A DNA stretch of 64,000 nt. It comes from a virus. The notes under the pieces are model-generated. The model was not told the origin of the DNA, did not search any database, and saw nothing but the letters and a program-made list of their open reading frames with translations. Positions within the stretch are counted from its first letter, which is position 1; each line of letters opens with the position of its first letter. The DNA lies in IMG/VR virus record IMGVR_UViG_3300021960_000027, positions 1 to 64,000 of that record. One strand, 5' to 3'. Of the stretch, positions 7,850 to 50,142 are shown in pieces. Both the position numbers and the translations under genes were made by a program.

Positions 7850-9415
7850 ATGGGTATTCGCCGGACTAAAAAGGTTGCATACATGTCGCATTCGTTTGAC
7901 GACGTTGAGCGTGGGTTTGGCGATGCTAAGGATGGCAAAGAACGTCTCCCCGGCGAATCATGGGAATATCTAGTTGGATACGACGCTGTTCTTGACGGCA
8001 AGTCGTTCAATCAGGCGATGGATGAGGCCGAGGCTGGCTGGGACAAAGAAGAGGCTATGTATGGTCGGGGTGGAATGAACTCTGGCTACGGTCCGACGAC
8101 GATCACTCCAAATTCTTCTCGTAAGACCGCAAGTATTGTTGATGATGCAATCGATGCATACAAAAGAGGGGAATTTGCATCTCTTTCTACCGAAGAACTT
8201 GCGATGCTGTGGAACTCAGTAAATTTTAAATTTTTTGATACTTCTGAGAAACGCTGGTGGGATGCCAACATTATGAGCAAGGCGCACGAAGAACTTATTG
8301 CCCGCGGATATTTCACAAGCAGTGCTACTGCCTCTGCTCGTAAGACCGCAAGTAATTACAACTTCCCCACTGTAACCAACGCAGAGATTCAAAAGTTTAA
8401 GAAGTTGCTGGATGCGATTGGTTACGGTGGCGAACCCGACGACGAACTCCACGACATTCTTCTTGCCAATGGTGGGTTTAAAAAGGCAATGGATAGGGCT
8501 GGGATTGTCAATGATGCCTACAACGATGCCAGAGGTGCTGGCGGTCTTGAGATAGAAGACGGCTGGGGTCTTTCTGTCCTGATCGAAACAACCAGTGGGG
8601 GAGATGTTGCCAGCGGATTTACTGGTGGATACCTCTCTTACAAGGCTTCTGATGAAGAGCGATTGGCAATTCTTGATGCCATCGTTGGTAAGTATCGAAG
8701 CAAAGAGTTTATCGAATCAGCCCAACTAAGAAAAAAATGGATTCTTGAAGAAATGAACAAGACTTCTTCTCGCAAGAACGCTGGTGTGGAGGACGTAGAT
8801 CGTTGGAACTCACTTTGGAAGTGCGACGAGTGTTGGCGTAAGGAAACCATGTACCATCCCGACACGGGTCAGGTTGACGAAGCCGAGAGCCGTGGGTGGG
8901 TTATCGAATACGACGATAATGAAGATATTGATTGGGTACTTTGTCCAGAATGTGCGGGTAATCAAAAGACTTCTTCTCGCAAGACATCTGCAACGTCAGG
9001 TGAGGTTGAGGCGATCATTGGCAAGTTTGATGGTGACCACAAGTCGCGTGTTCAAGCAATGGCAGACCTCATGGAGTACGGTCCGAATTACAACCGCAGT
9101 GTGACGGAGCATGTTCTCACCGCAATGCGCTTCCAAGGCGATGAGCGTGAATGGTTTGTTCGTCGTGCAGAAGCACAGGCAAATCTTGCTCGCACGGGCG
9201 AGTGGTTGCCTCCTATTCATCCGAGCGAAAGCGGTCAGCAGTTGACGCTGGACATTGAGTCTTCTTTTAATGGATGTATGTGTGAGCAAAAGTGTGGGCG
9301 AATTGCGTCTGTTATTGCAAGTTGCCGAACATCGGATGGCATAGAGGGTCAGTATTGTCTTGTCTGTGCAAATGCGCTTGATTTTAAAATCTCTCGTAGA
9401 AAGATTGATTCGTGA
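7850..9415 (+). CDS. Modular protein with four SRKTA-type linkers
   Basis: A 521-aa protein. ATG 7850 has GGAG 5 nt upstream; TTG 7832 is less likely. The linker peptides NSSRKTAS (from residue 88), ASARKTAS (161), TSSRKNAG (305) and TSSRKTSA (374) split it into five modules of about 70-145 residues. The fourth module has a four-cysteine zinc pattern (CDECW and CPEC), and the last has CMCEQKC and CLVC. The linkers are encoded by near-identical DNA. No overall homologue is known to me. Its position just before the prohead protease and its promoter suggest a virion role. Processing by that protease is my inference. Confidence 0.85.
   Translation: MGIRRTKKVAYMSHSFDDVERGFGDAKDGKERLPGESWEYLVGYDAVLDGKSFNQAMDEAEAGWDKEEAMYGRGGMNSGYGPTTITPNSSRKTASIVDDAIDAYKRGEFASLSTEELAMLWNSVNFKFFDTSEKRWWDANIMSKAHEELIARGYFTSSATASARKTASNYNFPTVTNAEIQKFKKLLDAIGYGGEPDDELHDILLANGGFKKAMDRAGIVNDAYNDARGAGGLEIEDGWGLSVLIETTSGGDVASGFTGGYLSYKASDEERLAILDAIVGKYRSKEFIESAQLRKKWILEEMNKTSSRKNAGVEDVDRWNSLWKCDECWRKETMYHPDTGQVDEAESRGWVIEYDDNEDIDWVLCPECAGNQKTSSRKTSATSGEVEAIIGKFDGDHKSRVQAMADLMEYGPNYNRSVTEHVLTAMRFQGDEREWFVRRAEAQANLARTGEWLPPIHPSESGQQLTLDIESSFNGCMCEQKCGRIASVIASCRTSDGIEGQYCLVCANALDFKISRRKIDS
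8118..8354 (+). repeat. 18-bp direct repeat at module borders
   Basis: An identical 18-bp sequence starting CTCGTAAGACCGC occurs at 8118-8135 and 8337-8354. It encodes the RKTAS linker twice. Confidence 0.85.
8759..8984 (+). repeat. 19-bp direct repeat at module borders
   Basis: An identical 19-bp sequence starting AAGACTTCTTCTCG occurs at 8759-8777 and 8966-8984. It encodes KTSSRK at the third and fourth linkers. Confidence 0.85.
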
Positions 9416-10470
9416 GCAAAGAACAACTGTACAAATTAGAAAACGAAGTCGAAATGTTGATGGACTTTTTTGAAGAAAACAAAGTCCCAAATGCTCTTCT
9501 TGATGTGTACGAAGGGAACATTCGTAAGGCTTTGAAGCGGGTTGATCCAGCCCTGTTTGGCGACTACGCACTGACGGGTGGAGATTTCCCAAGCATTCTT
9601 TCTGAAGCACTTTTCGTCTCTGCTAACCACGACCCGTACAATGCCTTCAACTCCATTGTTTGGAGCGACACGGTCACTGTTGTTTCTTCTTGGGTTGACA
9701 AGTTGAACAAAGAGAAGGACATGATTGTGTCACGGGGCGATGAAGTTCGTAACGAACTCTGGTCAGACCCAGTTTCCCGTGCCGTCTCATCCCGAAAGAC
9801 CGCTTCACCAAAGCCGTATCGGGGCACCTACGTCTCCGAGTATGACACCATTCGCGATATGTATCGGCGCGCCCTTGAAGACCAAGAAGATGCTGTCCGA
9901 GGGTCTACTGACGAGTATTACGAAATGTCAGATGACGAATGGGACTATGTGTGGGATTCGATGATTAGTAGCGTGGAAGATACTTTTACGATGGACATCG
10001 GAAAATATGCTGATGAGATCGTGGAGGATTTTATTGGTGTCCGACCGGGAGATTTGGCAGGCACTAGCAGTTCCATTGACATTGACATGACTCTTGACGA
10101 ATGGAACAAGCAGTTTGAGAAAGAGTCTTCTCGTAAAATTGCTTATTCCAGTTGGCTCAATGAGCAACAAGAAATTCTTCGCGTCAATGATTACAGGGCA
10201 GAAGACTCGGAGCGGAAATCGTGGCTGAAGGATTCTGGGACTGTTAGAGATGGCGTAAAAGTTGTCTACATTAACCTTGATGAAGAATCTGAGAATATCT
10301 ACTGGAGGGTTGAGAGTTTCGCCCCCGGTTGGGATTCTGACGAAGTGACGCTTGAGGCAGAGGGAGTGGAACGCTCTCTGAAAGACGTATGGCCTCAAAC
10401 CGACCGAATTACTCATCCAGAATTTTTTGGAAAAGAGTCTTCCAGTATTGATTACTGGGGATCAATCTAA
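9412..10470 (+). CDS. Modular protein with two SRKTA-type linkers
   Basis: A 352-aa acidic protein starting at GTG in a 4-nt GTGA overlap with the previous gene. SSRKTAS (residues 126-132) and SSRKIAY (239-245) divide it into three modules. The middle module is strongly acidic and aromatic (DEYYEMSDDEWDYVW). The third looks beta-rich (VKVVYINLDEESENIYWRVESF). No domain is recognised. Coupling to the 7850 gene and the shared linker suggest one pathway. Confidence 0.82.
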   Translation: MSKEQLYKLENEVEMLMDFFEENKVPNALLDVYEGNIRKALKRVDPALFGDYALTGGDFPSILSEALFVSANHDPYNAFNSIVWSDTVTVVSSWVDKLNKEKDMIVSRGDEVRNELWSDPVSRAVSSRKTASPKPYRGTYVSEYDTIRDMYRRALEDQEDAVRGSTDEYYEMSDDEWDYVWDSMISSVEDTFTMDIGKYADEIVEDFIGVRPGDLAGTSSSIDIDMTLDEWNKQFEKESSRKIAYSSWLNEQQEILRVNDYRAEDSERKSWLKDSGTVRDGVKVVYINLDEESENIYWRVESFAPGWDSDEVTLEAEGVERSLKDVWPQTDRITHPEFFGKESSSIDYWGSI

Positions 10471-10480
10471 CGAAAGGTTT

Positions 10481-10555
10481 GGTAGCAGAGTCCACCTCCT
10501 GCTTTGCTACCACGGGGGGAGCCGAGCGTTGGGTTCGGCTCCCCCCACTTTTTAA
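10481..10555 (+). terminator. Two hairpins, second an intrinsic terminator
   Basis: GGTAGC/GCTACC (10481-10486 with 10506-10511) is followed by a GC-rich 12-bp stem. GGGGGGAGCCGA (10514-10525) pairs with TCGGCTCCCCCC (10535-10546), and ACTTTTT follows. This is the strongest rho-independent terminator in the window. It closes the 7850-10470 unit. Confidence 0.85.
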
Positions 10556-10564
10556 GGAAACAAA

Positions 10565-10765
10565 ATGCAAATCATCCAGTGGACTATCGAATTTAACGAA
10601 CAAGATGGTGAGTCTGGTTGGGATGTGTTTTTTGATAACAGGGTTGTGGAGTATGCGCTTCCAGAAGAGGATGATGCGCTGGATGTCGTGAGGCAACGTG
10701 CAGGTTCCCCAACTACTGTTCTCATTATTGATGAGTTCGACGGTGAACGTCAGGTCGTTGCTTGA
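10565..10765 (+). CDS. Small hypothetical protein
   Basis: A 66-aa acidic protein with AAGGAAA upstream of ATG, directly after the terminator. The sequence alternates strands and acidic loops (WDVFFDNRVVEYALPEEDD). Function not recognised. Confidence 0.66.
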   Translation: MQIIQWTIEFNEQDGESGWDVFFDNRVVEYALPEEDDALDVVRQRAGSPTTVLIIDEFDGERQVVA

Positions 10766-10766
10766 G

Positions 10767-10799
10767 CCTGTCTTTGCGTCTGGCAATCCTCCGAAAGAG
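10767..10799 (+). promoter_or_regulatory. Candidate phage promoter motif (variant)
   Basis: CCTGTC (10767-10772), 21 nt, AAAGAG (10794-10799), just before the protease gene. The AAAGAGA could equally be its ribosome-binding site, so the promoter call is weak. Confidence 0.35.
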
Positions 10800-10804
10800 A
10801 TGAC

Positions 10805-12856
10805 ATGGCATTTACAAAGTTCGCTCGTTCAAGTGTATTAGAGGCTGAAGTCGCTGGTCGTTCCGGTGGCTTGATGAAGAACGCTCACCGACATACGTTT
10901 GATTACACCCCACGGGAGGGATACTTGTATGTTCGGTCTAGGGCGATTTCTTCCAGAACGAACGACAACTTTGACACGTTCCCTTCTGAAGAAATCAAGA
11001 AGGCGTGGGCTACGTTTGTAGGTAAGCCAGTTTTTGTTAACCACCACAATGACGATCATCGTCGTGCGCGTGGTGTTGTTATTGACGCGGCTCTGCATGA
11101 GGACATCGCTCCAGACGGCACAGATGACACTTGGGTTGAGGTGCTGATGGAAATTGATGCCATCACGTTCCCCAAGTTGGCGAAAGCAATTCTTGCTGGC
11201 GATATTGAGCGGACAAGCATGGGTTGCGACGTTGCTTTTTCTGTGTGTTCTGTGTGTGGCAACAAGGCGACGACTCCGATGGAGTATTGCTCTCATATTC
11301 CTCGCATGAAAGGTCAGCGCATTCGTCGCAGGACAGCGTCTGGTTCTGGCACTGAGGATGTGCTTGTCCATGAGTTGTGTCATGGGCTGTCGTTCTTTGA
11401 GAACAGTGTGTTAGTCGAAGACCCTGCTGACCCGACTGCATATTTTATTGGTGTTGATGATCGTGGTGTCGGGGGTGGCTACACGGGCACGGTTACCAAA
11501 GCCGCGTCTAAGGCTGATGCTAAGAACGATGGTGATTTATGTTCTCAAGTTTCTCTTGGCACAACCGCCAGTGAGTTTGGCTCATACGAGTCAAAACTGT
11601 CTCTGTTTATCGGTATGGCAGAAGAGACGATGAAACGGCAGGGACTGACTGGTCGGAAAATTGAGTTGCCAGTCGGTCGCCAAGACGATCCGCAATATCA
11701 GCGTGCTATCGGTATCTGGAATGAATGGGCAAGGAAAGTCTCTGGGCTTGGTGTTATCTACATCCGTACAGGTACATCGTATGACACAGATTACGGTTAT
11801 TTAAAAAACAATCAGGCGTTTTACCAAAACGGCACGATTGTTGCTCGCCAATCAACAGATGAATTGACGCTATTGCATGAGATTGCCCATGCGATCCAAT
11901 TTAATGAAGGGCTTGAGGCTGGGGGGCACAACGTCGACTTTGCTCGCATTGCAAGCAATTTGTACCACAAGCACTTAGGCAAACAGGCAGGGGATTTGTT
12001 TGACGAGGTGTCCGCTTGGAAAGACTTTGAGTCTGGCAAGTTGTCTAGCAAGAGTGCATCTAAGCCTAAGGTTGATGTTGAGGCCGTCCCCCTAGCAATA
12101 AGTGGCTTTGACCTGCGTTCGTTCACAGTCAACGGGGAGAACTACAGCATAAGCACGGGTGGAGATGCTGTTGGGGGTGGACAGTACAACGGATATCTCG
12201 TTGCGTACGATTCAGGTGGGCGCAAGGCTGGCTACATCGATTACATGCAGTTGGGCGATGAGGTACAGATTGCGATGATTGAGGTAGAGCCTGAGTTCCG
12301 CAGAAAAGGTATTGCAACAGGTCTGCTAGGTGCCCTGAAGGTTCACACAGGATCAGAAAAAATTGATTCTGGCATGCTGACAGACGATGGCGGTAAGTGG
12401 TGGAATTCAGTCAATTCTTCAAGGCGTGATCGGTACTCAAACATGTACTCCGCTTCGCTTATCAAGAAGAAAGCGTTGACTGAGGATTCCAAGCCCGGTG
12501 TTTGGGCATCATCGATGCTTGATGTGGCTATTAACGCTTCAAATGGTGACGGAGATTGCTTTCCCTCGGCGGTAGCCACGGCACTAAAGTTTGAATCTAA
12601 AAATCCCTTGATTTGTCATGGACAGCCAATCTTCAAGGGGAATGGCGAGATGAACGGACAGCCATACGACCATGCTTGGGTTGAAATTGGCTCTACTGTT
12701 GTTGACCGCTCAAATGGACGAAAGGGCGACGGCGAGTTCCCTAAAGAACTGTATTACGATGTGGGGAACATTGACGGTGCCTCTGTTCGTCGTTACACGA
12801 TTGAAGAGGCGATGCTCAAAATCAGTTCTAATGGTCACTGGGGACCGTGGCGATGA
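10805..12856 (+). CDS. Prohead (capsid maturation) protease fused to three further domains
   Basis: A 683-aa protein, unusually long. Residues about 1-225 resemble actinophage prohead proteases: FVNHHN carries a candidate catalytic His and GDIERTSMGCDV a candidate Ser. A CxxC insert (CSVCGN, YCSHI) interrupts this part. IRRRTASG at residues 173-180 resembles the SRKTA linkers and could be a self-processing site. Residues about 240-400 carry a zinc-peptidase HEIAH (358-362). About 430-560 is GNAT-like, with RRKGIATGL near 499. The last 110 residues hold a Cys-His-Asp set (C585, H623, D634) typical of papain-like or NlpC-like folds. The protease is expected to trim the scaffold and capsid; the other roles are unknown. 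Confidence 0.78.
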   Translation: MAFTKFARSSVLEAEVAGRSGGLMKNAHRHTFDYTPREGYLYVRSRAISSRTNDNFDTFPSEEIKKAWATFVGKPVFVNHHNDDHRRARGVVIDAALHEDIAPDGTDDTWVEVLMEIDAITFPKLAKAILAGDIERTSMGCDVAFSVCSVCGNKATTPMEYCSHIPRMKGQRIRRRTASGSGTEDVLVHELCHGLSFFENSVLVEDPADPTAYFIGVDDRGVGGGYTGTVTKAASKADAKNDGDLCSQVSLGTTASEFGSYESKLSLFIGMAEETMKRQGLTGRKIELPVGRQDDPQYQRAIGIWNEWARKVSGLGVIYIRTGTSYDTDYGYLKNNQAFYQNGTIVARQSTDELTLLHEIAHAIQFNEGLEAGGHNVDFARIASNLYHKHLGKQAGDLFDEVSAWKDFESGKLSSKSASKPKVDVEAVPLAISGFDLRSFTVNGENYSISTGGDAVGGGQYNGYLVAYDSGGRKAGYIDYMQLGDEVQIAMIEVEPEFRRKGIATGLLGALKVHTGSEKIDSGMLTDDGGKWWNSVNSSRRDRYSNMYSASLIKKKALTEDSKPGVWASSMLDVAINASNGDGDCFPSAVATALKFESKNPLICHGQPIFKGNGEMNGQPYDHAWVEIGSTVVDRSNGRKGDGEFPKELYYDVGNIDGASVRRYTIEEAMLKISSNGHWGPWR

Positions 12857-13854: not shown

Positions 13855-13860
13855 GACTGT

Positions 13861-15189
13861 ATGGCTGAAAAGAAAGAATTTTGGGAAAAGAAAAATCCCA
13901 AAGAAAAATCAAAGAAACTTACTCCTGAGCAAAAAGCAAAGGCGAAACGTCGTGCCAAGGAGAACGGTCGTCCGTACCCGAACATGGTGGATAATGCGTG
14001 GGCATCAAAGGAAGGCTCGGTAGACATAGAAGATTCTTCTATGAAAAGTCTTGCTTATGGAGAATTGACTGCTCCAGAAAACGTCGACACACTTCGCCTT
14101 AAAGACTGCCCTGTTTGTGGTGAGGATGATTCTTGGGATAGCGATGGACGTTGCCGTGTTTGTGGTCACATTCCACCCCCAGAACCATTCCAAGAGCCGA
14201 ATTTAGATATTGCACAAAAAGCAGACATGCGATCCGGTCCGATTAATCCAAATCTCTTTAAATCTCCTGCCTTTGAGGAAGAGGAAGAAGAAGAGGATGA
14301 GGATGATGAAGAAGAAGTTGGCGGTAACACTGTCAACGCCACGTTAAATCCACGGAAGACACAGAAGTTCTACCGTCGTCAACAAGGAGAGCGTTCAATG
14401 CGCCATACGGCTTCGACCAACAAAATGCGTAGCATCATTCAGGCTCAGGCAAATCAGATTGCTGAGTTGCAGGGACAGAATGATTCTTTGCGCCGTCGTC
14501 TAGCAGTTGCTAATCGTCGTTCAGCACAACTTCGTCGTCGTGCAGACATCGACAACCCAGCACAGCCTTGGGCAGAGGGTGCAGAAGAGGCACCAGCCGC
14601 GACCACAGAAGGAACCATCCCATCGGCTCAGAATTCTGACGTTGATGTGACGACTCCGGGTGGTTGGCAGGATGCTCCTGAAGCGATGAGCGTTGATGTA
14701 ACCGAGGCCGGTGGCGTTTCAATGGCAGAGCCTGCTGTTGACCAAGATGTTACCGCCCCAGTTGCTGGTGGTGTTGACCACGCCATTGAAGACCTTCGCA
14801 CTGAAGTTGATGTGAATGCTGATGGAGAGGGTATGGGCGAGGTCGCCTACGCCGATGGCGAGTGGGCAACAGATGCAACAACCGCATCAAAGCGCACCTT
14901 TGCTTCACTCCGTCTTGCTCGCCTCCGCATTGAGGCTGGAATTGACAGCGGTGATGACATTACGCTTGCAGAAAAGATTGCTAAGAGCAACGTTACTACT
15001 GCACAGATTCGCAACGAAATCAGCACTCTGTCAAAGGTTCAGAGTGTTTCGGCTTCTCGTCGTACGGCATCTCGTCCGCAAGCAAATGTTGTCCGCAACG
15101 TTCCTTCGCTTGTTTCGACTGCCGCGCCTGTCGTTCATGTTCCGGCTCCTTCAATTAGCCCGAACAACGACGAGTTCTTGTTCATCTGA
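13861..15189 (+). CDS. Scaffold-like head protein
   Basis: A 442-aa protein. It has a Lys-rich N-terminus, a zinc ribbon (CPVCG and CRVCG near residues 82-100) and a polyacidic run (about 139-153). A predicted coiled coil follows (about 187-220, IIQAQANQIAELQ), then a long Ala/Glu/Val-rich region. Processing-like peptides are RHTAS (181-185), SKRTFAS (343-349) and ASRRTAS (398-404). A low-complexity, acidic, coiled-coil protein right after a prohead protease and before the capsid gene is typical of scaffolds. The zinc ribbon is unusual for one. Confidence 0.7.
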   Translation: MAEKKEFWEKKNPKEKSKKLTPEQKAKAKRRAKENGRPYPNMVDNAWASKEGSVDIEDSSMKSLAYGELTAPENVDTLRLKDCPVCGEDDSWDSDGRCRVCGHIPPPEPFQEPNLDIAQKADMRSGPINPNLFKSPAFEEEEEEEDEDDEEEVGGNTVNATLNPRKTQKFYRRQQGERSMRHTASTNKMRSIIQAQANQIAELQGQNDSLRRRLAVANRRSAQLRRRADIDNPAQPWAEGAEEAPAATTEGTIPSAQNSDVDVTTPGGWQDAPEAMSVDVTEAGGVSMAEPAVDQDVTAPVAGGVDHAIEDLRTEVDVNADGEGMGEVAYADGEWATDATTASKRTFASLRLARLRIEAGIDSGDDITLAEKIAKSNVTTAQIRNEISTLSKVQSVSASRRTASRPQANVVRNVPSLVSTAAPVVHVPAPSISPNNDEFLFI

Positions 15190-15204
15190 TAAAAGGAAGC
15201 AATC

Positions 15205-15423: not shown

Positions 15424-15429
15424 TCTTTT

Positions 15430-15455
15430 ATGCCCCTCCTAAAAAATAGGGGCAT
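15430..15455 (+). promoter_or_regulatory. RNA stem-loop spanning both holin start codons
   Basis: ATGCCCCT (15430-15437) pairs perfectly with AGGGGCAT (15448-15455) around a 10-nt A-rich loop. Forming the stem would mask both ATGs. Confidence 0.65.
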
Positions 15456-15711: not shown

Positions 15712-15716
15712 TTATC

Positions 15717-16763
15717 ATGGGCTACCCCTGCATCAAGTTGCAAATGCCATCAGCGATGAATGGCCTGAAGAATGGTCAGTTGCCAGAGTCTATGCTTGCT
15801 CGCGTTAAGACGGGTGGGCGTATGTACGCTCCTGTCGTTGAAGAGTTCAACAAGATGTATGACGCGGCTCTCGCGGCAGGACACAAACTCCGTAACGTTG
15901 GTGATTACCGTTCGTTCCAAAGCCAGTTGAACATGTTCATGGATCGCTATTCGACTACCGACTTTGGTCGTTCGCCACAGGTTGCTCGCCAATATGAAGG
16001 CAAGACTTGGTATCTCAAGCCCGGTAAGGCACCGTCCGCTGTTCCAGACCCGACCGGAACCAAGGGTTCCAACCACGGTTGGGGACTTGCTATTGACCTT
16101 GCGTATGAGGACAGTGCTGGCAAACTCCGCGGCATGGGTGGAGCCTGTTTCGACTGGCTCTGCGAGAATGCGCCAAAGTACGGCTTCTATCTTCAGACTT
16201 CTGACCGTAACTCTAAGTGGTGGGAAGCATGGCACTGGCAATATTGCTTGGGTGACGCAAAACCTGACCCTAACGCACAGCCAGAGGTTGAAAGTCTTCC
16301 AGCAGAGGCACAGGGCAACCAGTCTCTTCGTAAGGGAGCAAGGGGTGAAGCAGTCAAAGAAATCCAAAAGATTGTTGGGGCAAGCCCAGTAGACGGTGAC
16401 TGGGGTTCAAAGACTGATATCGCAGTTAAGGCTTGGCAAAAGAAGCACGGTCTACAAGCGGATGGTGTATGGGGCAACATGTCCAGCGAGCATGCCGCGA
16501 ACTGTGATTGCAATAAGAAGTCAACGCCTGCTCCTGCTCCTGCTCCTAAGGTCAGTTCACATCCGTATCCCGGCAAATCAATTCGTCGTGGTAGCAAGGG
16601 TGAAAGCGTCAAACTTGTTCAGGCAAAGGTTGGGGCAAAACCGGATGGAGATTTCGGACCGGCAACTGAGCGTTCAGTCAAGGCTTGGCAAAGCAAGCAC
16701 CCAGAGTGCGGTCCGAGCGATGGAGTAGTTGGTCCGAAAACTTGGGGAGTGATGTTTTCGTGA
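15717..16763 (+). CDS. Endolysin: M15 (VanY-type) peptidase plus two peptidoglycan-binding domains
   Basis: A 348-aa protein. The N-terminal half has SNHGWGLAID (residues 118-127) and EAWHW (170-174). These are the SxHxxGxAxD and ExxHW motifs of M15 D-Ala-D-Ala carboxypeptidases and L-alanyl-D-glutamate peptidases, giving zinc ligands H120, D127, H173 and catalytic E170. Two PG_binding_1-type repeats follow (about 197-262 and 283-348), joined by an Ala-Pro linker. It cleaves peptide stems of the host wall at the end of infection. AGGAG precedes the ATG, and a membrane protein overlaps its end. No signal peptide is seen, so export depends on the holin. Confidence 0.9.
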   Translation: MGYPCIKLQMPSAMNGLKNGQLPESMLARVKTGGRMYAPVVEEFNKMYDAALAAGHKLRNVGDYRSFQSQLNMFMDRYSTTDFGRSPQVARQYEGKTWYLKPGKAPSAVPDPTGTKGSNHGWGLAIDLAYEDSAGKLRGMGGACFDWLCENAPKYGFYLQTSDRNSKWWEAWHWQYCLGDAKPDPNAQPEVESLPAEAQGNQSLRKGARGEAVKEIQKIVGASPVDGDWGSKTDIAVKAWQKKHGLQADGVWGNMSSEHAANCDCNKKSTPAPAPAPKVSSHPYPGKSIRRGSKGESVKLVQAKVGAKPDGDFGPATERSVKAWQSKHPECGPSDGVVGPKTWGVMFS

Positions 16764-16984: not shown

Positions 16985-17008
16985 TGCCCTCGCATTTGAT
17001 GTAGAACG

Positions 17009-18616
17009 GTGAAAAGAAAACTTGCTTTTTTAAGTAAGTTTTTATTTGCTTCTGTTCTAGCCCTTGCTTGGCTATCTCCATCTCCTGCTTACGCATTCGC
17101 TTACACGGTCACTGAAGAGTCTGACTGGTATTTCACCATTGATAACGACAGCACTCTTGTTGTTATCTACGGAAACAGCAACGAGTCATGCGAAGCAGTC
17201 ACGACCGACCCATATCTGTGGCTGTATGACGACAACCCTGAATCAACGGGTGATCTGATCGCCCAGAATGATGACGGCAACCACAACTCCAATGACCAGT
17301 GTGTGTCGTCGAAAATCTACACGACCTTGAACGCTGGCGACTATAGATTGCGCGCAGGCTACTGCTGTTCTCAGGTAGGTCTTGGTAATACGAATGATTG
17401 GGGTGACGGTACATACGAAATCGTCACGGATTTAACGTTTGATGGTGCTTCACCGAACGTCCCTACAACGACCACCACAAGTACGTCAACAACCACTAGC
17501 ACAACCACCTCTACTACAACTACGACAACCGAACCTCAAACAATCGGACCGCCGATGAATTTGGTGGCAGAGTTAACTAGCGAGGGTGTGTTGCTTGATT
17601 GGGATGCACCAAACATTGGCAACGTTGACCCTGAGCGTTACGCAATATCTTGGAGAATTCCACCCGATGCTGGCTGGGGTGTTGCCACAGGAAATGTGGG
17701 CGACGAAAACGCTCTCAATACTGAAATTACCCTTGGATTTAATTTGTTTGAATCGACTGGTGGTTTAGACAAAACGTATGTTTTCGATGTTCGTTCAGAC
17801 AACGACACTTTGTCAATGTACTCTGGCTGGTCAAACCAAGTTGAGTTATCCGTTTCTGCTCCAGTGGTTACAACTACTTCAACTACCACCAGCACAACAA
17901 CAAGTACCACTACCAGCACTACCAGCACTACTACCACCAGCACTACTACAACAACCACCACTGTCCCCCCAACAACTACTCTGCCCCCAACAACAACGAT
18001 ATGGATACCACCAACAACGACAACTATTGCCCCGGTAGTGACCTCTACCACAGTCGCTCCAACAACACTTCCACCAACGACGGTTCCGACAACTACGTCT
18101 TTACCCCCGTCAACATCAACCAGCACCATTCCACCATCGACATCTACGACGACTACTATTTTGCCAACTACTACGACGGTGCGTGTGATAAGCACCTCAT
18201 CAACCTCCACCACAACTACGACTGAAGTTCCTAAAACGGTAGTTGTTTCAGAAAGTCAAGAAATCGTCTTAGAGAAAATTGAAGACGAAGAATTGTACGA
18301 AGAGGTTGTTTCGGTTCTTCAAGATGATGTTTCTGTGGAAGACGTTGTCGCCCTTGTAACAGACGAGGGATTTGAGGATTTGGATGACGGAGTTTTGGTA
18401 ATTGTCGCAGAAGCACTGTCGGATGCGCCAAAAGAGGTTAAAGAAGAGTTTGAAGATCAAGTTGATATTTTTGGAAACGATGCTTTTAATTCTTACGTTC
18501 CAGCGGACAGTAAAGTTCCAGTAAGTACAAGAAGAAGCATTATTGCCGTAACAGCCGCGGTGACAGCCAGCAGTTCCATTTCAGGAGGATCAGTACAGAG
18601 AAGAACGAAGCATTAA
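17009..18616 (+). CDS. Secreted Thr-rich FN3 protein
   Basis: A 535-aa protein with a Sec-type signal peptide (VKRKLAFLSKFL, a hydrophobic core, then a cleavage site near AYAF). A beta domain with several Cys follows, then a Thr/Ser linker, a fibronectin type III-like domain (about 185-290) and a long TTTxP-rich linker (about 290-410). An acidic domain comes next, and a C-terminal hydrophobic stretch (SIIAVTAAVTASS) ends in basic residues. This matches actinobacterial cell-surface proteins more than phage structural ones. It may be a host-derived moron acting at the cell envelope. It is odd inside a lysis/head region. Confidence 0.78.
   Translation: MKRKLAFLSKFLFASVLALAWLSPSPAYAFAYTVTEESDWYFTIDNDSTLVVIYGNSNESCEAVTTDPYLWLYDDNPESTGDLIAQNDDGNHNSNDQCVSSKIYTTLNAGDYRLRAGYCCSQVGLGNTNDWGDGTYEIVTDLTFDGASPNVPTTTTTSTSTTTSTTTSTTTTTTEPQTIGPPMNLVAELTSEGVLLDWDAPNIGNVDPERYAISWRIPPDAGWGVATGNVGDENALNTEITLGFNLFESTGGLDKTYVFDVRSDNDTLSMYSGWSNQVELSVSAPVVTTTSTTTSTTTSTTTSTTSTTTTSTTTTTTTVPPTTTLPPTTTIWIPPTTTTIAPVVTSTTVAPTTLPPTTVPTTTSLPPSTSTSTIPPSTSTTTTILPTTTTVRVISTSSTSTTTTTEVPKTVVVSESQEIVLEKIEDEELYEEVVSVLQDDVSVEDVVALVTDEGFEDLDDGVLVIVAEALSDAPKEVKEEFEDQVDIFGNDAFNSYVPADSKVPVSTRRSIIAVTAAVTASSSISGGSVQRRTKH
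17461..18225 (+). repeat. Low-complexity Thr/Pro codon repeats
   Basis: Two ACN-rich tracts (about 17461-17535 and 17866-18225) encode Thr/Ser/Pro linkers within the secreted protein. They also create a spurious valine-rich open frame on the minus strand. Confidence 0.8.
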
Positions 18617-18626
18617 GGAAGCATCC

Positions 18627-19466: not shown

Positions 19467-20456
19467 ATGAGTAACCTTAACCTCGCAGGCGGTTTGAAGC
19501 CCCGTGTTGCTAAGAAGAGCGACGATTACGTTTCAGAGATTCTGAAGCGTCGTGGCAACAACGAAGGGACTGGCCTTTCAACCGAGGCCAAGATGAAGAA
19601 GATGGCTCTCATCCTTAGCGATGAGTCAAATGGCATCCGTCGTCTTGGCGTTGGAATGATCGGTCCAATCCAGTTGAAGTTGCGTTATCAGGGTATCGTC
19701 CGCAACGTTCTCATCGAAGACCCGGTGACCCCCGGTACTCCGGTTGAGTACGATGTGTTTGACGATCTTGGTCAGGCATACATCATGTCTGGTACTGACG
19801 GCGAAGTTCGCATTCAGCCATTTGAGGGCAAGCGTGTGCCAGTGCGGTTCTTCCGTATTGCTTCACAGCCTGCAATCCGTAAGGAAGACCTCTACTACCT
19901 CCGTATTAATGCGGTGGAGCAGGCGCAGGATGAGACGAAGCAGGCAATTATGAAGCAGGAAGATGCTCGTCTGATGACGCTTCTCGCTTCGGCTCTGTCT
20001 GACTATGGTAGCCGTTCGGATCACTCTGTCTCACCGACCCACACGGTCACCGAGACTGGTTCGTACTTCTCGCCAGACACGCTGTACAGCACTGTTTCGC
20101 TGATTGACCAGCACGAACTTGAGGCTTCACGGCTTCTCGTTTCACCTTCGGACTACCGTGACTTCTATCGTTGGAGCATCAACGAGACGGGCTGGGCGTT
20201 CAAGGATCGTGTTGTCGCAGGCGAAAAGGTCACGACCTTCGGTGAATTCCAGATCGCTCGTTCGATCATGGTTGACGCTGGTTCGATGTGGCTCCTGCCT
20301 TCACCAGAATTCCTCGGTGTCTTCCCCGTCCTCTACTCGTTGGACGTTGAAGAGAACCATCAGGTGGAATCCTTCTGGAAGGGCTGGGTCTTTGACGAGA
20401 TGGTGTCAATGGCTATCCTCAACCCTCGCGGTATTGCGAAGATGGTCAAGCCCTGA
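19467..20456 (+). CDS. Major capsid protein
   Basis: A 329-aa protein with GAGAGGAAAG upstream of ATG. It resembles HK97-fold capsid proteins of large actinophages. There is an acidic-basic N-arm, then a long region of strands and helices, with YYLRINAVEQAQDETKQAI as the likely spine helix. A late domain (VSPSDYRDFYRW, then FLGVFPVLYSLDVE) resembles capsid P-domains of the encapsulin-like group. The N-terminal LKPRVAKK contains an RVA peptide similar to the proposed protease sites. A strong terminator follows. Position after scaffold and decoration genes supports the call. Confidence 0.85.
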   Translation: MSNLNLAGGLKPRVAKKSDDYVSEILKRRGNNEGTGLSTEAKMKKMALILSDESNGIRRLGVGMIGPIQLKLRYQGIVRNVLIEDPVTPGTPVEYDVFDDLGQAYIMSGTDGEVRIQPFEGKRVPVRFFRIASQPAIRKEDLYYLRINAVEQAQDETKQAIMKQEDARLMTLLASALSDYGSRSDHSVSPTHTVTETGSYFSPDTLYSTVSLIDQHELEASRLLVSPSDYRDFYRWSINETGWAFKDRVVAGEKVTTFGEFQIARSIMVDAGSMWLLPSPEFLGVFPVLYSLDVEENHQVESFWKGWVFDEMVSMAILNPRGIAKMVKP

Positions 20457-21181: not shown

Positions 21182-21188
21182 TAAAATC

Positions 21189-43315: not shown

Positions 43316-43350
43316 TAGACACAATCTTTCTAAATTGATACCATAACTTA

Positions 43351-45571: not shown

Positions 45572-46134
45572 TTGCGAGCCTTCGCCTCGCGAGCCTTAGC
45601 CATCCGCTCAACCAGAATCGCACGCTGTTCTGGAGTAAGTTCACGCTTCTTCCGTGGGGCGGTGAACTTGACCTTGAGTTTCTTGAACTCTGCCTTAAGG
45701 CTGTCGTGGGCTTCTTTGCCCATGAAGTGACGGACAAGATCAAGTTCAACCTGACAAAACCTCCAGTTGTGCTTGTTGTGCAAGCCAGCCAAGTGGTGAG
45801 CAACTTCGTGGATGACGACAAACTCTTGCCTGCCCCAAATTCCTAGCGAGATAGTTTTAACTCCCCACTCGTCGCGTGCCATCCCACCGCTTTTACCCGC
45901 TACAACCCGAATGCTCTTGCCCCACCGGATAATGCCCGAAGAGTCGTACTTCCTCTGGACGTACTTTGATGTCAGGATTTTGTCGACCATCTTCTGGCAC
46001 TCTTCGATGGTCATCGGCTGAATCTCTCGGTTGCCTACTGAACCGTACGCCGTCTTCCGATATACGGACTGCTGAATGCCAGCGTTCCGCTCTGCCTTGT
46101 AAACCTTGCTTCTCTGGCTATCTCGCTGTGACAT
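45553..46134 (-). CDS. TIGR04338-like zinc metallohydrolase
   Basis: A 193-aa minus-strand protein. I chose the ATG at 46134 because AGGGA lies just upstream and it gives MSQRDSQRSKVYKAE, the N-terminus expected of TIGR04338 proteins. HEVAHHLAGLHNKHNWRF is the metal-binding HExxH with a later histidine. The C-terminus is basic (RKKRELTPEQRAI). Family members are actinobacterial and of unknown substrate; the fold recalls SprT-like proteases. Opposite orientation to neighbours suggests independent control. Confidence 0.8.
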   Translation of the reverse strand: MSQRDSQRSKVYKAERNAGIQQSVYRKTAYGSVGNREIQPMTIEECQKMVDKILTSKYVQRKYDSSGIIRWGKSIRVVAGKSGGMARDEWGVKTISLGIWGRQEFVVIHEVAHHLAGLHNKHNWRFCQVELDLVRHFMGKEAHDSLKAEFKKLKVKFTAPRKKRELTPEQRAILVERMAKAREAKARNQSSSS

Positions 46135-46249
46135 CTTCCCTCCCGATGTGTTGGTTGATACAATGATATTATCACATGGAAAAATCTGAGTCAAATTGTA
46201 GAATGCCGTTCGCTACCAATGATTGCTGGTACGCTGTGCTAAACAATAC

Positions 46250-46278
46250 TTGCACTGACTGTCAGGGAATGCTAAAGT
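46250..46278 (+). promoter_or_regulatory. Sigma70-like promoter
   Basis: TTGCAC (46250-46255), a 17-nt spacer and TAAAGT (46273-46278). It is 21 nt upstream of ATG 46300, with AGGAGG between. Confidence 0.6.
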
Positions 46279-46299
46279 CGTCTCAGGAGGACAACCAAC

Positions 46300-46644
46300 A
46301 TGATGTACGATCCAAAGGCAATGCTCGTTTTGACCAAGCGATTGGTCGGGGAAATGAAGGGCAAGTTTTCTTCAACCCTTGACCCAGACTCAAGGCAGTA
46401 TCTCAAGGAGACGCTGGAGAATCTTTCTTCACTGAGTGGAGATCGTCAGTGCGTAAAGGTCGACCTAGAGTTCGTTACGTTCATCGACCAAGCAATGTGT
46501 CAGTGGATTGAAGAGCAGATCAGCGAGTTGTACGGCAACTACAGCGTGTCTTCAACCAAGATGCTCAACCATTTTCGTCAAGTGAAAAGCGATCTTGACG
46601 AGTCAGTCTTGGACTGGGCACGGACAGCAATTTTTACCGACTGA
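46300..46644 (+). CDS. Hypothetical protein
   Basis: A 114-aa protein with AGGAGG 9 nt before ATG. Sequence LENLSSLSGDRQCVKVDLEFVTFIDQAMCQWIEEQI resembles a STAS/DUF-like alpha-beta unit but is too short to assign. It has its own promoter and is followed by the HicA-like gene. Function not recognised. Confidence 0.72.
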   Translation: MMYDPKAMLVLTKRLVGEMKGKFSSTLDPDSRQYLKETLENLSSLSGDRQCVKVDLEFVTFIDQAMCQWIEEQISELYGNYSVSSTKMLNHFRQVKSDLDESVLDWARTAIFTD

Positions 46645-46670
46645 GAATCAACTGGGGGAAAGGAGGAACA

Positions 46671-46889
46671 GTGGCAAAAAACAATCAGCCATCAATCAAA
46701 AAGGACGTACGGAAAGTCATTCGTCGTGCTGAGGAAAGTGGATGGGTTGTTGAGTACACCCGAAATGGTCACATTAAGTGGGTGGCTCCAGACGGAGTTA
46801 CGATATTGATTTGTCCGTCAACCGGCTCTAGTCGGTCATGGAAGAATCATCTTGCTCGCTTGCGTCGACACGGGATCACAGAAAAATAA
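46671..46889 (+). CDS. HicA-like small protein
   Basis: A 72-aa basic protein from GTG with AAAGGAGG upstream. RRAEESGWVVEYTRNGHIKWV with its central His, then a Ser-rich turn and basic helix (SWKNHLARLRRHG), fits the double-stranded-RNA-binding-like fold of HicA mRNA interferases. No HicB antitoxin is next to it. Such solitary HicA-like proteins are frequent in actinophages. They may not act as toxins. Confidence 0.62.
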   Translation: MAKNNQPSIKKDVRKVIRRAEESGWVVEYTRNGHIKWVAPDGVTILICPSTGSSRSWKNHLARLRRHGITEK

Positions 46890-46900
46890 TCTGTGATTTG
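46875..46900 (+). terminator. Hairpin overlapping the HicA-like stop codon
   Basis: ATCACAG (46875-46881) pairs with CTGTGAT (46891-46897) and is followed by TTGT. It probably ends the 46300-46889 transcript. Confidence 0.5.
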
Positions 46901-46903
46901 TAT

Positions 46904-47320
46904 GGGAAGACATTCCGCGTGGTAATGTCGTCCCGTGGTTCTCAACCTCATTGGTACATCACCTTCACTCCGGTGGTCGGGGTTCGCCCGTTATAGCGAC
47001 GTACGGTCGTGGGAGGTCGTTACACCCCACCGAAAGGCTAGTCGTACCTATCAGCCATAACGAGTCGATCACCAGCGTCGGGTTCCAAGGCGTGCCCGTT
47101 CCCCGACACTGATACGAGAACCATGCTGAGTCGACATATACCGGCAACGGATGTAAAACACGGTCATCATTGACTGTGGGGTAAAGCAGGGAAACCTGTG
47201 TGACACATCTCTGGGCTGACGGGAACCCATGCGGAGTTCAGCCCCAGACCCTCTGAGCGCGAAACCAGCCAGAGAAAGATTTATCTTTCTTTGTCGCGTT
47301 CAGGGGGGTCTGGGCACCCC
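46904..47320 (+). ncRNA. Long structured non-coding RNA candidate
   Basis: This is the only stretch of more than 300 bases without a gene on either strand. It folds into many stems. GGGA-GACATT (46904-46914) pairs with AATGTC-TCCC (46924-46934). CGGTGG (46971) pairs with CCACCG (47027-47032), enclosing a CGGG/CCCG hairpin. GTCGGG (47077) pairs with CCCGAC (47102). CAGG-GAAA-CCTG (47187-47198) is a GNRA hairpin, and CTGGGCTGA (47211) has a partner at 47238-47247. A long terminal arm is CCAGACCC (47244) with GGGTCTGG (47306-47313), enclosing an 8-bp AGAAAGAT hairpin. Strand is assumed from the neighbours. I cannot match it to tmRNA, RNase P, 6S or a group I intron by eye. Confidence 0.6.
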
Positions 47321-47343
47321 ATCGGAGTTCAAGGGTAAGAGAT

Positions 47344-47375
47344 ACTGTCAATAAGATTCTTTCTACTTCTAAGAG
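47344..47375 (+). promoter_or_regulatory. Candidate phage late promoter motif
   Basis: ACTGTC (47344-47349), 20 nt, TAAGAG (47370-47375). It lies between the structured non-coding stretch and the gene at 47405. A second TAAGAG occurs at 47336. Confidence 0.6.
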
Positions 47376-47404
47376 ATGTAAGTATTTAAGTCTTTGGAGT
47401 TCTG

Positions 47405-47782
47405 ATGCCTGTTGTTCGTAATTTGGTTCGTAGTGCGTCTGGTGAAACCTATTATCATGCTTCTTTGTATGAATTCCGTCAGGGTGAGATCGTGAAGCCT
47501 GCGTCTCAGGGGTTGAAGGCGAATTGGAACGAGACGAATCCTGAGTATGCGTATGCGATGAAGTCTCTTGATGATGCGTGGCGGTGGGCTGATAAGGGTC
47601 ATCAGAATCATGTGTATTACGATCATCAGGGCGAGTATTTGGCTTGTATGCATTGGCCGATGGTGTTTGAGGTGGTTGCGGTGAATCCTGCGGATGTTGT
47701 GGATGAGGATATGCCGTGGAGTGGTGTGATGTCGAAGTCTGGGTTTCGGGTAGTTCGCCAGATGCCTGATCCTGATTTGTGA
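47405..47782 (+). CDS. Arr-like ADP-ribosyltransferase-fold protein
   Basis: A 125-aa protein with GGAG 5-6 nt before ATG. YYHASLYEFRQGEIVKPAS, then AYAMKSLDDAWRWAD and VFEVVAVNPADVVDED, follow the strand order of Arr (rifampin ADP-ribosyltransferase) proteins. In these the opening YHG-type motif binds NAD. Here GT is replaced by AS, so activity is uncertain. In a phage it could modify host proteins or nucleic acid. Size is close to Arr (about 140 aa). Confidence 0.55.
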   Translation: MPVVRNLVRSASGETYYHASLYEFRQGEIVKPASQGLKANWNETNPEYAYAMKSLDDAWRWADKGHQNHVYYDHQGEYLACMHWPMVFEVVAVNPADVVDEDMPWSGVMSKSGFRVVRQMPDPDL

Positions 47783-47783
47783 T

Positions 47784-47816
47784 ACTGTCTGCGTGGTAGT
47801 TTTAACTGGATAAGAG
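47784..47816 (+). promoter_or_regulatory. Candidate phage late promoter motif
   Basis: ACTGTC (47784-47789), 21 nt, TAAGAG (47811-47816), 26 nt before the ATG of the modular gene at 47843. Confidence 0.6.
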
Positions 47817-47842
47817 TTGTACCGCACAACCTTGAGGTCTTT

Positions 47843-49252
47843 ATGAAAACATTGTTTGATCTGATTCCTGAACCCAACGAAAGTCGTTCTGCTTCGCTCA
47901 AAACTGCGATTAGCGTTCCAAAAGATTTTCCTGTTCAGCCAGACCCAAACGGTAATGCGACTTGTGGTGTGTGTGGGTTGTCTTGGGATGACGATGTTGT
48001 GACATCGTTTACGCCCGTTCCCGCTGGTCGTTGTCCTTTTGAATATTTCCATGAAGATTGGGACGAAGAGGACGATGAGGACGATGAGTTTTCGTCTTAT
48101 GCTTCGCGCAAGACGGCGGGTGATTATTCTCATTGGAATGAAGAAGCAGATCGAATGCGGTATTTGGATGAGAAGGATTACGAGCCAGACCCGTATGACT
48201 CTTATGAATCTTCTGGCGGTTATGACCATTGGGACGAAGAGGACGAAGATGACATTGAGTCACTGAGTTCTCGCAAAGTTGCTGGCGATGCTCCCGTGTG
48301 TCAAATCTGTAGTGGCACGGGTGCAGGAGTACAATTTTCTATGTTTCCTCAGGTTGAGGGATATTCGTTTGGTGAGATTTGCGTTGATTGTGAAGAGCGG
48401 TTGGCGATTGAGCAGTCGGAACTTTCAGCGGATGACGATCTTTCTTTGATGTACGGTGCGTCACGCAAGACTGCTGGCGCAATGCTTCAGATTGTTTGGG
48501 AAAACGATAAGGGTGACCCAGAAGTCCACAGGGCTGGTTGCGGTAATCTTGCTAAGTACAAGAGGGGCGTTGACAATCCGACGGAGTATGCGTCACTGAA
48601 AGATGTGACGTTTGATATCTATCCTCCCGATGATTTTGGGTATGACGAGGGCGATTGGGAGATTTATGCTCCGAAGGTTCACAGTTGCGTGAAAGGATTG
48701 CCGAAGACTGCCGGTCTGCTTATCTACAAGATTGAGACACCTAAGGGTGTTCTTCCTTACGATTTTGAGACTGAGCAAGATGCCAAAGATTTTGCGATGG
48801 CAAGTTTGTCTTGGACAGGAACGAAGTATCGAATCATCAAGAAGCGCAGGGTCGCCGGTAGTAAAGTTTCTGCTTGGGATGCGCCTTCTGAAAATGACCA
48901 GTATGACGCACCGATGCATTCAAAGATGTATCCAGAGATTGTGATTTATGCTCCGGGCACAATGGCCGCGACAATTATTGTCCCCGATTATTACGCAGAT
49001 AAGTGGATTCCAAAAGAATTGCTTATTTCTCCAAGCGTTACTCGCGTGAAGGCTGGAGCGCATTTTGATGTCTATCCAATCAGTGTTGATGGATACGCTT
49101 TCTCTGAGGGTATGCCAATCGATATCCCTCTAGCGTTCATTCCCGGTTTGGCTGATGAGTGGAGCGGAAGTTCTCAGCAGTGGCATTTGGATGAAATGAA
49201 TCGTCTGTATGGCACTGATTACAAGTTTAAGACTGTTGCGAAGCGGAGGTAA
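47843..49252 (+). CDS. Modular protein with six SRKTA-type linkers
   Basis: A 469-aa protein under its own promoter motif. Linker peptides are SLKTAI (to A22), ASRKTAG (87-93), SSRKVAG (142-148), ASRKTAG (206-212), PKTAG (287-291) and KKRRVAG (333-339). They bound seven segments. The first large one has a zinc-ribbon pair (CGVCG and CPFEYF), the fourth CQICSGTG and CVDC. The others are acidic or beta-rich. KTVAKRR closes the protein. No family is recognised. Together with the 7850 and 9412 proteins it forms a class of beads-on-a-string proteins that I infer are substrates of the prohead protease. Confidence 0.84.
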   Translation: MKTLFDLIPEPNESRSASLKTAISVPKDFPVQPDPNGNATCGVCGLSWDDDVVTSFTPVPAGRCPFEYFHEDWDEEDDEDDEFSSYASRKTAGDYSHWNEEADRMRYLDEKDYEPDPYDSYESSGGYDHWDEEDEDDIESLSSRKVAGDAPVCQICSGTGAGVQFSMFPQVEGYSFGEICVDCEERLAIEQSELSADDDLSLMYGASRKTAGAMLQIVWENDKGDPEVHRAGCGNLAKYKRGVDNPTEYASLKDVTFDIYPPDDFGYDEGDWEIYAPKVHSCVKGLPKTAGLLIYKIETPKGVLPYDFETEQDAKDFAMASLSWTGTKYRIIKKRRVAGSKVSAWDAPSENDQYDAPMHSKMYPEIVIYAPGTMAATIIVPDYYADKWIPKELLISPSVTRVKAGAHFDVYPISVDGYAFSEGMPIDIPLAFIPGLADEWSGSSQQWHLDEMNRLYGTDYKFKTVAKRR

Positions 49253-49255
49253 GCA

Positions 49256-49546
49256 GTGGCTAACTATGAGGTTTTGAAATCAAAGCATGCTTCGTTGTCT
49301 ACTACTAACGAGGATGTTGTGACGGTGCTTGGTTCGATTCGCACGATTACCGTGCTGAACCACGATGCGTCAAACCTTTTGTATTTCAATGTTGGTGCAG
49401 TTGATCCGGGTGCAGTTACTTCTGCCGCGGACAATTCTTACTGTGTTCCCGTGAGCGGTGAGGTGACTGTTAAGTTGTCTTCACACGGTGCGGTTGTCCG
49501 TCTTATTGGAAGCGGAAACGCTTACTCTGTTCAAGCAATTCAATAA
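49256..49546 (+). CDS. Small beta-rich virion-like protein
   Basis: A 96-aa protein from GTG with GGAGG upstream. Strands such as TVLGSIRTITVLNHDASNLLYFN and VPVSGEVTVKLSSHGAVVRLIG form a likely beta sandwich, as in capsid decoration or fibre-tip proteins. It lies between two linker-containing genes. Function unknown. Confidence 0.66.
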   Translation: MANYEVLKSKHASLSTTNEDVVTVLGSIRTITVLNHDASNLLYFNVGAVDPGAVTSAADNSYCVPVSGEVTVKLSSHGAVVRLIGSGNAYSVQAIQ

Positions 49547-49557
49547 AGGAATACCTA

Positions 49558-50142
49558 ATGGCTCTTAAATTAGTTCATGCAGGTCAAAATAATAATTTGA
49601 CCATGACGGTCACTTCACAAGGTTCTTCCTTGGTAGTTGTCAATTTGACTCCCGACTTTGGTCAAATGCTTCCAAGTGGCAGTTCTTTTAGTAACAGTAT
49701 TGCTCTTGATCGGAGCAAGGGTGCCGATTTCAACGTCAAGTATGTTTTGGACATTCTTGAGAAAGAATTGCGAGCAGTTTTTTCTAAAAACGAAGAGGGT
49801 TCAACGACTGCCTCTCGCAAAACTTCAGCACAGGCCGACCAGTTTTATCAAGACCTGTTCGTCACCGCGATGGAGGGTGGAGTTAATTTTTGGGCAGAGG
49901 TACAGGACTACGATCCGAGCAATCTTACTGCCACTCTGATTGACCTCATGGACGGGAAGAAGTACGAGGTAAATCGTTCAACTCTTCTTAAAGGGTACAA
50001 GTTGGCTCAAAATACTCCTTCTCACTGGTGGTCAATCGACAACAAGCCCCCAATGATTCCTAATGAAGAATGGGATTATGACGCTTGGGATGCCAACCTC
50101 GTTGTTCAGTTGGGTCTGTTTGAAGACATGGTGTACGGCTAA
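49558..50142 (+). CDS. Hypothetical protein with one SRKTS linker
   Basis: A 194-aa protein with AAAGGAAT upstream. Residues 1-80 are beta-rich (NNNLTMTVTSQGSSLVVVNL). TTASRKTSAQ (83-92) is a linker matching the 7850 protein. The C-terminal module is about 100 residues (FWAEVQDYDPSNLTATLIDLMD). Cleavage would give two products. No family is recognised. Confidence 0.74.
   Translation: MALKLVHAGQNNNLTMTVTSQGSSLVVVNLTPDFGQMLPSGSSFSNSIALDRSKGADFNVKYVLDILEKELRAVFSKNEEGSTTASRKTSAQADQFYQDLFVTAMEGGVNFWAEVQDYDPSNLTATLIDLMDGKKYEVNRSTLLKGYKLAQNTPSHWWSIDNKPPMIPNEEWDYDAWDANLVVQLGLFEDMVYG

What the first reader, a model, noticed from the sequence alone, without database searches (positions are those of the whole stretch)
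7850..50142. A recurrent SRKTA/SRKVA linker peptide divides several proteins into cleavable modules
The peptide (A/S)-S-R-K-(T/V)-A, usually followed by S or G, occurs four times at 7850-9415 (residues 88, 161, 305, 374). It occurs twice at 9412-10470 (126, 239), about six times at 47843-49252, once at 49558-50142 and as RRTAS variants in the scaffold-like protein. It falls between compact segments, several with zinc cysteines. The proteins lie near a prohead protease that itself holds IRRRTASG at residues 173-180. I infer these are protease recognition sites and the proteins are polyprotein-like internal capsid cargo, comparable in logic to T4 internal proteins. The motif is seen; the cleavage is inference.
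Basis: partly seen in the sequence, partly recalled or inferred. Interest (0 to 1): 0.88.

Follow-up and report, generated by a model that had tools for sequence, protein, structure and literature searches.

The report
Phage head polyproteins with RKTA sites
This phage and its relatives string enzymes and other modules into long proteins separated by a short repeated sequence (basic residue–Thr–Ala), most likely the cutting site of the phage's own capsid protease, which would release a set of small proteins inside the virus head for delivery into the next host cell.

Summary
The motif is real, selected at amino-acid level, and wider than reported. In the 118-kb record S-R-K-(T/V)-(A/S)-type sites occur 15 times in head-region proteins and never elsewhere (shuffled expectation 0.13). 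Only 5 of the listed copies are exact (A/S)SRK(T/V)A; the rest are variants.

The same site, relaxed to (R/K)-T-A|(A/S/G), recurs in cultured relatives (Bxz1-type LinStu, Myrna, Stormageddon, Finch: 41 in 14,092 aa of portal/protease-neighbour proteins against 5 in 34,470 aa elsewhere) and in 73 uncultured relatives. There the prohead protease is the N-terminal part of a 463–2217-aa fusion carrying acetyltransferases, 2H, zincin and other modules, often ending in the scaffold. Sites lie just before and after the protease, before the scaffold and between cargo domains. Independent phage families matched in the phage's proteins start at the sites; no site lies inside one.

Best explanation: polyvalent virion proteins cut into modules by the fused capsid protease. 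Cleavage has not been observed. This is a new variant of known prohead-protease processing and of "polyvalent proteins", testable in culturable phages.

The parts
7850..9415 (+). 521-aa (527 from TTG 7832) orphan motif protein, cargo candidate; sites SRKTA 8117-8131, ARKTA 8336-8350, SRKNA 8768-8782, SRKTS 8975-8989
   Evidence: no Pfam, PHROG or NCBIfam family
9412..10470 (+). 352-aa orphan motif protein, cargo candidate; sites SRKTA 9790-9804, SRKIA 10129-10143
10805..12856 (+). 683-aa prohead protease-cargo fusion: protease domain (residues 26-212), SprT-like zincin (354-386), GNAT acetyltransferase (463-514), C-terminal unassigned region
   Evidence: PHROG head maturation protease 8.8e-23, Pfam SprT-like/GNAT (SprT just below its cut-off), AF2 plus BFVD prohead proteases
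10877..10885 (+). K25-N26-A27, predicted propeptide site at the start of the ordered protease domain
   Evidence: AF2 pLDDT <50 for residues 1-27; basic-x-A-H-R at this place in most relatives
11321..11344 (+). IRRRTASG (residues 173-180): beta hairpin in the folded protease domain, probably NOT a site
   Evidence: strand-turn-strand, pLDDT ~85; replaced by RADPKTG, RGADGK etc. in relatives
11498..11506 (+). K232-A-A, possible site after the protease domain (same place as K-A-A-S-K-T-A in relatives)
   Evidence: inference
12050..12058 (+). K416-S-A, possible site between zincin and GNAT domains
   Evidence: sequence; inference
12467..12475 (+). K555-K-A, possible site between GNAT and C-terminal region
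   Evidence: sequence; inference
13861..15189 (+). scaffold-like protein (fused to the protease in many relatives); site SRRTA 15055-15069
   Evidence: homology to C-terminal part of relatives' protease fusions; site conserved near scaffold C-terminus
19467..20456 (+). major capsid protein; R13-V-A (19503-19511) = conserved basic-x-A before K-x-S-D-D-Y-V, possible N-terminal trimming site
   Evidence: PHROG 2522 E 2e-104; N-terminal alignment
47843..49252 (+). 469-aa motif protein with zinc-ribbon-like segments and acidic linkers; sites SRKTA 48104-48118, SRKVA 48269-48283, SRKTA 48461-48475, and KTA 47900-47908, KTA 48704-48712, RVA 48848-48856
49558..50142 (+). 194-aa motif protein; site SRKTS 49813-49827 (residues 86-90), PHROG 2355 module matched from residue 89 to the end

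Best explanation
The motif is the recognition site of the phage's prohead (capsid maturation) protease, with specificity near (R/K)-T-A | (A/S/G), in this phage refined to S-R-K-(T/V)-A | (S/G). The motif proteins are multi-module precursors ('polyvalent' proteins) that enter the prohead with the protease and scaffold. During maturation the protease cuts itself free, cuts the scaffold and excises the modules, which stay in the head as small proteins and are injected with the DNA. Shown here: motif enrichment, its confinement to portal/protease/scaffold neighbours, its position at domain borders, its conservation across distant relatives, and fusion of the protease to cargo in relatives. Inferred: that the bond after Ala is cut, that this protease cuts it, and that the products are packaged and injected.
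For: Enrichment in the record: 15 v 0.13 shuffled; varied codons. In cultured LinStu, Myrna, Stormageddon and Finch, head genes picked by homology and position, not by motif: 41 sites in 14,092 aa v 5 in 34,470 aa, Fisher 2e-17, shuffled 2.7. 73 uncultured relatives: protease N-terminal, ORFs 463-2217 aa. In 64 non-redundant ones [RK][TV]A occurs 173 times after the protease v 64 shuffled, at 21.9 per 1000 residues at +10..24 after the protease domain, 12.4 just before the scaffold Zn module, up to 32 near the scaffold C-terminus, background 2.85. In L018's 1824-aa protein the pieces between sites give, one after another, GNAT, unassigned, GNAT + ParB-C-like, 2H, GNAT, SprT (weak), GNAT, unassigned, GNAT, unassigned. 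PHROG/Pfam modules in this phage's motif proteins: 6 of 9 start within 12 residues of a site (p 0.0017), 0 sites inside modules v 4.7 expected. The site precedes a conserved C-terminal peptide in the portal-downstream protein of nearly all lineages (RTAGRxFS..EQ). Modules swap between proteins and phages. Ordered protease fold starts right after K-N-A27. Phage G capsid protein, a homologue, is trimmed from 282 to 255 residues by N-terminal sequencing (PMC5646251); that places the cut after A-L-A27.
Against: No cleavage product has been seen. In phage G P1 is Ala but P3 is not basic. Sites vary at P2 and sometimes end in Ser. A test of [RK][TV]A against BLAST-defined homologous cores across phages was only weakly positive (p 0.03-0.24). 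Single-sequence AF2 of the 7850-9415 protein is too poor to use (pLDDT 42). No PDB match for the protease model; the protease call rests on PHROG and BFVD matches. Not every predicted domain border carries a site.
Confidence: 0.78

Rival explanations
1. The motif is a packaging or docking tag (binds scaffold, portal or capsid) that loads the proteins into the prohead, without being cut.
For: It is confined to head-neighbour proteins and sits in linkers; several copies per protein would give avidity.
Against: It also lies at both ends of the protease domain, before the scaffold and, as basic-x-Ala, at the capsid protein N-terminus; conservation narrows to three or four residues with Ala at the end, typical of a protease site; one copy per domain border is not needed for a tag.
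Confidence: 0.1
2. The modules are separated by another protease: the zincin metallopeptidases carried in the fusions (as proposed for polyvalent proteins by Iyer et al. 2017) or a host protease after injection.
For: SprT-like domains are present in the window's protease fusion and weakly in L018; PMC5512222 proposes this role for zincins.
Against: The sites flank the prohead protease domain itself and the scaffold. I did not scan the cultured relatives for zincins, so whether any site-bearing phage lacks one is untested.
Confidence: 0.08
3. It is a flexible basic linker, a phosphorylation site or a DNA-binding patch with no processing role.
For: Basic plus Thr looks like kinase or DNA-binding motifs; the sites lie in linker-like stretches.
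Against: Invariant Ala and small P1' (Ala 3.6x, Ser 3.5x) are not needed for either; Val replaces Thr often in this phage; fixed position relative to protease and scaffold.
Confidence: 0.03
4. Chance or composition.
For: The motif is short.
Against: Shuffles, gene-set contrast and independent phages all reject it.
Confidence: 0.01

Closest known systems
T4 / phiKZ / SPN3US prohead-protease processing of internal head proteins
   Same: A herpes-assemblin-like head protease cuts scaffold, capsid, itself and internal ejected proteins at a short X-containing motif; SPN3US gp245 cuts after AXE in many head proteins, with multiple cuts in propeptides (PMC10052503; T4 and phiKZ rules from general knowledge).
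   Different: Here the predicted rule is basic-Thr-Ala, not X-Glu; sites separate many different modules rather than trimming N-terminal propeptides, and the protease itself is the N-terminus of a cargo fusion.
Polyvalent proteins (Iyer et al. 2017, PMC5512222)
   Same: Long phage proteins joining zincin, ART, GNAT, 2H and other enzyme domains, placed near virion genes and thought to be injected; that paper already names a mycobacteriophage Alice GNAT.
   Different: [quoted passage not shown] here it is N-terminal and a shared cleavage motif between domains is proposed.
Ceeclamvirinae (Bxz1, Myrna) and Stormageddonvirus/Finchvirus head modules
   Same: Homologous capsid protein, protease and protein order; (R/K)TA(G/A/S) sites in the same genes.
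   Different: The window phage splits protease+cargo and scaffold into two ORFs and uses the longer S-R-K-(T/V)-A form many times.
Phage G head (MCP trimmed 282 to 255)
   Same: Homologous capsid protein and protease; the reported mature length puts the cut after Ala.
   Different: P3 is Ala, not basic; the protease ORF is only 300 aa.

Membership tests
Prohead protease (assemblin-like / S78 type) | Sequence similarity to head maturation proteases | tested here: met
   PHROG 18299 head maturation protease, all 17 aligned members, best 4e-28
Prohead protease (assemblin-like / S78 type) | Fold of prohead proteases | tested here: met
   BFVD: 123 matches E<=0.001, among them named prohead proteases, XkdF and COG3740; no PDB match
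Prohead protease (assemblin-like / S78 type) | Conserved catalytic His and Ser | tested here: met
   Invariant His80 and Ser138 in 17 sequences; their catalytic role is inferred
Prohead protease (assemblin-like / S78 type) | Proteolytic activity on head proteins | not testable with these tools
   needs biochemistry or virion proteomics
Polyvalent proteins | Two or more unrelated enzyme domains in one phage protein | tested here: met
   window 10805: protease, SprT-like, GNAT; L018: GNATs, ParB-C-like, 2H, weak SprT
Polyvalent proteins | Encoded beside virion structural genes | tested here: met
   portal, scaffold and capsid neighbours
Polyvalent proteins | Packaged and injected with the DNA | not testable with these tools
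   one module is like part of a PHROG annotated 'released from the phage upon host infection', a hint only
T4-type internal head proteins | Cut by head protease at (I/L/A/S)-X-Glu | tested here: not met
   the enriched sites end in Ala (or Ser) after basic-Thr/Val; works like them, is not one of them

The most novel reading that the evidence does not exclude
A general cargo-loading code: in a broad group of actinobacterial myoviruses any protein module placed between (R/K)TA sites in a few head polyproteins is carried into the prohead and cut free by the fused protease, so that enzymes are exchanged between phages as cassettes bounded by protease sites - a true polyprotein system in tailed phages.
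Probability: 0.5. Interest if true: 0.82.

Novelty: new variant of a known kind. Interest (0 to 1): 0.68.

Why it matters
It gives a concrete predicted cleavage rule for a large, much studied group of actinobacterial phages whose big head-neighbour proteins are mostly annotated 'hypothetical', and predicts the exact ends of a hidden set of probably injected proteins (acetyltransferases, 2H, zincin and other modules). It would offer an alternative to the zincin-only model of how polyvalent proteins are processed in this group, and could suggest a way to load foreign proteins into phage heads.

Tried and rejected
Site inside the protease (IRRRTASG): rejected, folded hairpin and not conserved. 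BLAST-core exclusion test across phages: weak, because shared architectures align through linkers; replaced by the PHROG/Pfam module-start test. AF2 of 7850-9415 without alignment: too poor. PDB fold and sequence searches for the protease: nothing. Close relatives of the 784-aa and 469-aa motif proteins in IMG/VR: none. Papers on SRKTA, on cleavage motifs in this phage group, and on virion proteomics of Bxz1-type phages: none found in the open library. Strict SRKTA in relatives: absent in most; the shared part is (R/K)TA(A/S/G). A DNA-repeat origin: rejected by codon variety. Phage G: P1 Ala fits but P3 does not; a post hoc K-x-A-(S/A/G) pattern is modestly enriched and is not used as proof. 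The site statistics for G001 and G002 are not relied on, because their head sets were picked after seeing the motif.
Full report
OBSERVATION. Exact (A/S)SRK(T/V)A occurs five times in the listed ORFs; the remaining listed copies are one- or two-residue variants. The record behind the window is a 117,937-bp virus contig. In its called plus-strand genes the pattern S[RK][RK][TV][AS] occurs 15 times in 6,818 aa of head-region proteins and never in the other 29,624 aa; shuffling gives 0.13. The head-region set was chosen partly with the motif in view, so the shuffle, not the Fisher value, is the fair test here. Copies use different codons: selection acts on the peptide. The richest proteins lie outside the window around the portal gene (105072-107171): 97337-98140, 98137-100491, 100460-103090 and 107313-109898. 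The contig is probably a permuted genome, so these lie upstream of the window's left end (inference).

WHAT THE PHAGE IS. Capsid protein and protease relate it to actinobacterial myoviruses: Bxz1-type (Ceeclamvirinae), Myrna, Gordonia phages Stormageddon, Skog and Pupper, Rhodococcus phage Finch. Relatives of the protease are also found in two Streptomyces genome records.

THE PROTEASE IS FUSED TO CARGO. The 683-aa product of 10805-12856 starts with a head maturation protease domain (fold matches to prohead proteases in BFVD; invariant His80 and Ser138) and continues with a SprT-like zincin and a GNAT acetyltransferase (SprT slightly below its cut-off). In 73 IMG/VR relatives the protease is at the N-terminus of ORFs of 463-2217 aa, median 1070. 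Many run on into the scaffold, which in the window is the separate ORF 13861-15189. The extreme case, L018, is 1824 aa; cut at the sites (and two weaker look-alikes, RTQA and HTAA) its pieces hold, in order, GNAT, unassigned, GNAT plus a ParB-C-like domain, 2H phosphoesterase, GNAT, SprT-like (weak), GNAT, unassigned, GNAT, unassigned.

WHERE THE SITES ARE. In relatives the core is (R/K)-T-A followed by Ala, Ser or Gly. In 64 non-redundant fusions [RK][TV]A is found 173 times after the protease against 64 expected, and not evenly: 21.9 per 1000 residues at 10-24 residues after the protease domain, 12.4 in the 12 residues before the VDTLR scaffold module, 15-32 per 1000 behind the scaffold core helix, 9.4 at the start of the protease, background 2.85. 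In four cultured phages, with head genes chosen by homology and position, 41 sites fall in 14,092 aa against 5 in 34,470 aa elsewhere, Fisher 2e-17, 2.7 expected from shuffles. In the portal-downstream protein the site stands immediately before a conserved C-terminal peptide in nearly all lineages. The capsid protein N-terminus has a conserved basic-x-Ala before K-x-S-D-D-Y-V.

SITES BOUND MODULES IN THIS PHAGE. Scanning its motif proteins against PHROGs and Pfam gives nine modules known as separate or differently joined proteins. Six of nine start within 12 residues of a site (permutation p 0.0017) and no site lies inside a module against 4.7 expected (p 0.002). Examples: PHROG 30974 starts at residue 438 of the 861-aa protein, directly after A-R-R-V-A437; PHROG 2355 starts at residue 89 of the 49558 protein at its single site. 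Single modules are shared with other phages in other contexts, e.g. a 44-residue module of 100460 lies inside the protease fusion of G002.

STRUCTURE. AF2 of the protease domain with 15 relatives (mean pLDDT 75) leaves residues 1-27 disordered and the fold starts right after K25-N-A27, where most relatives have basic-x-A-H-R. IRRRTASG is a strand-turn-strand hairpin within the fold and varies in relatives: probably not a site. AF2 of the 7850-9415 protein alone is uninformative.

MECHANISM. The most likely working is: precursors co-assemble in the prohead with the fused protease; on maturation the protease frees itself and cuts scaffold and cargo after (R/K)-T-A; the excised modules remain in the head and are injected. 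Support from outside this group: the homologous capsid protein of phage G is shortened from 282 to 255 residues by N-terminal sequencing (PMC5646251), which puts the cut after A-L-A: Ala at P1 agrees, P3 does not. That the products are injected is inferred from the enzyme types and from the polyvalent protein literature (PMC5512222). A module of 100460 resembles part of a PHROG annotated as released upon infection, a hint only. No call here measured cleavage.

COMPARISON. In logic this is T4/phiKZ/SPN3US head processing (SPN3US cuts after AXE; PMC10052503) joined to polyvalent proteins. It differs in the sequence rule, in separating many modules rather than removing propeptides, and in the N-terminal position of the protease; Iyer et al. 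reported assemblin-like peptidases only at C-termini and gave the processing role mainly to zincins. I found no paper describing the motif, but the library searched is open-access only.

Noticed in passing
L018:6780-12251: 1824-aa protease-headed polyprotein with at least five GNAT acetyltransferase domains, a 2H phosphoesterase, a ParB-C-like domain and a weak SprT match in one chain.
   Followed up: partly
window 17009-18616: Secreted-looking protein (N-terminal hydrophobic segment) with long Thr/Ser-rich repeats, placed between endolysin and capsid genes.
   Followed up: no
window 15717-16763: Endolysin (VanY peptidase plus peptidoglycan-binding) sits between scaffold and major capsid genes.
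   Followed up: no
G000:C1:80383-82260 (L002): 625-aa protein with many N-H-H-H-H repeats.
   Followed up: no
phage G (L135) gp7, gp14, gp19: K-x-A-(S/A/G) is modestly enriched in portal/protease neighbours of Bacillus phage G (15 v 2.4 expected), suggesting a related but looser site; pattern chosen post hoc.
   Followed up: partly
G001 (L024-L031) motif proteins: Met follows KTA more often than expected (4.8x), as if whole genes with their start codons had been inserted behind a site; not seen in the wider IMG/VR set.
   Followed up: partly
window 10805 protein, residues 148-164: Invariant Cys148/Cys151/Cys162/His164 in the protease domain: a likely zinc site inside the prohead protease.
   Followed up: no
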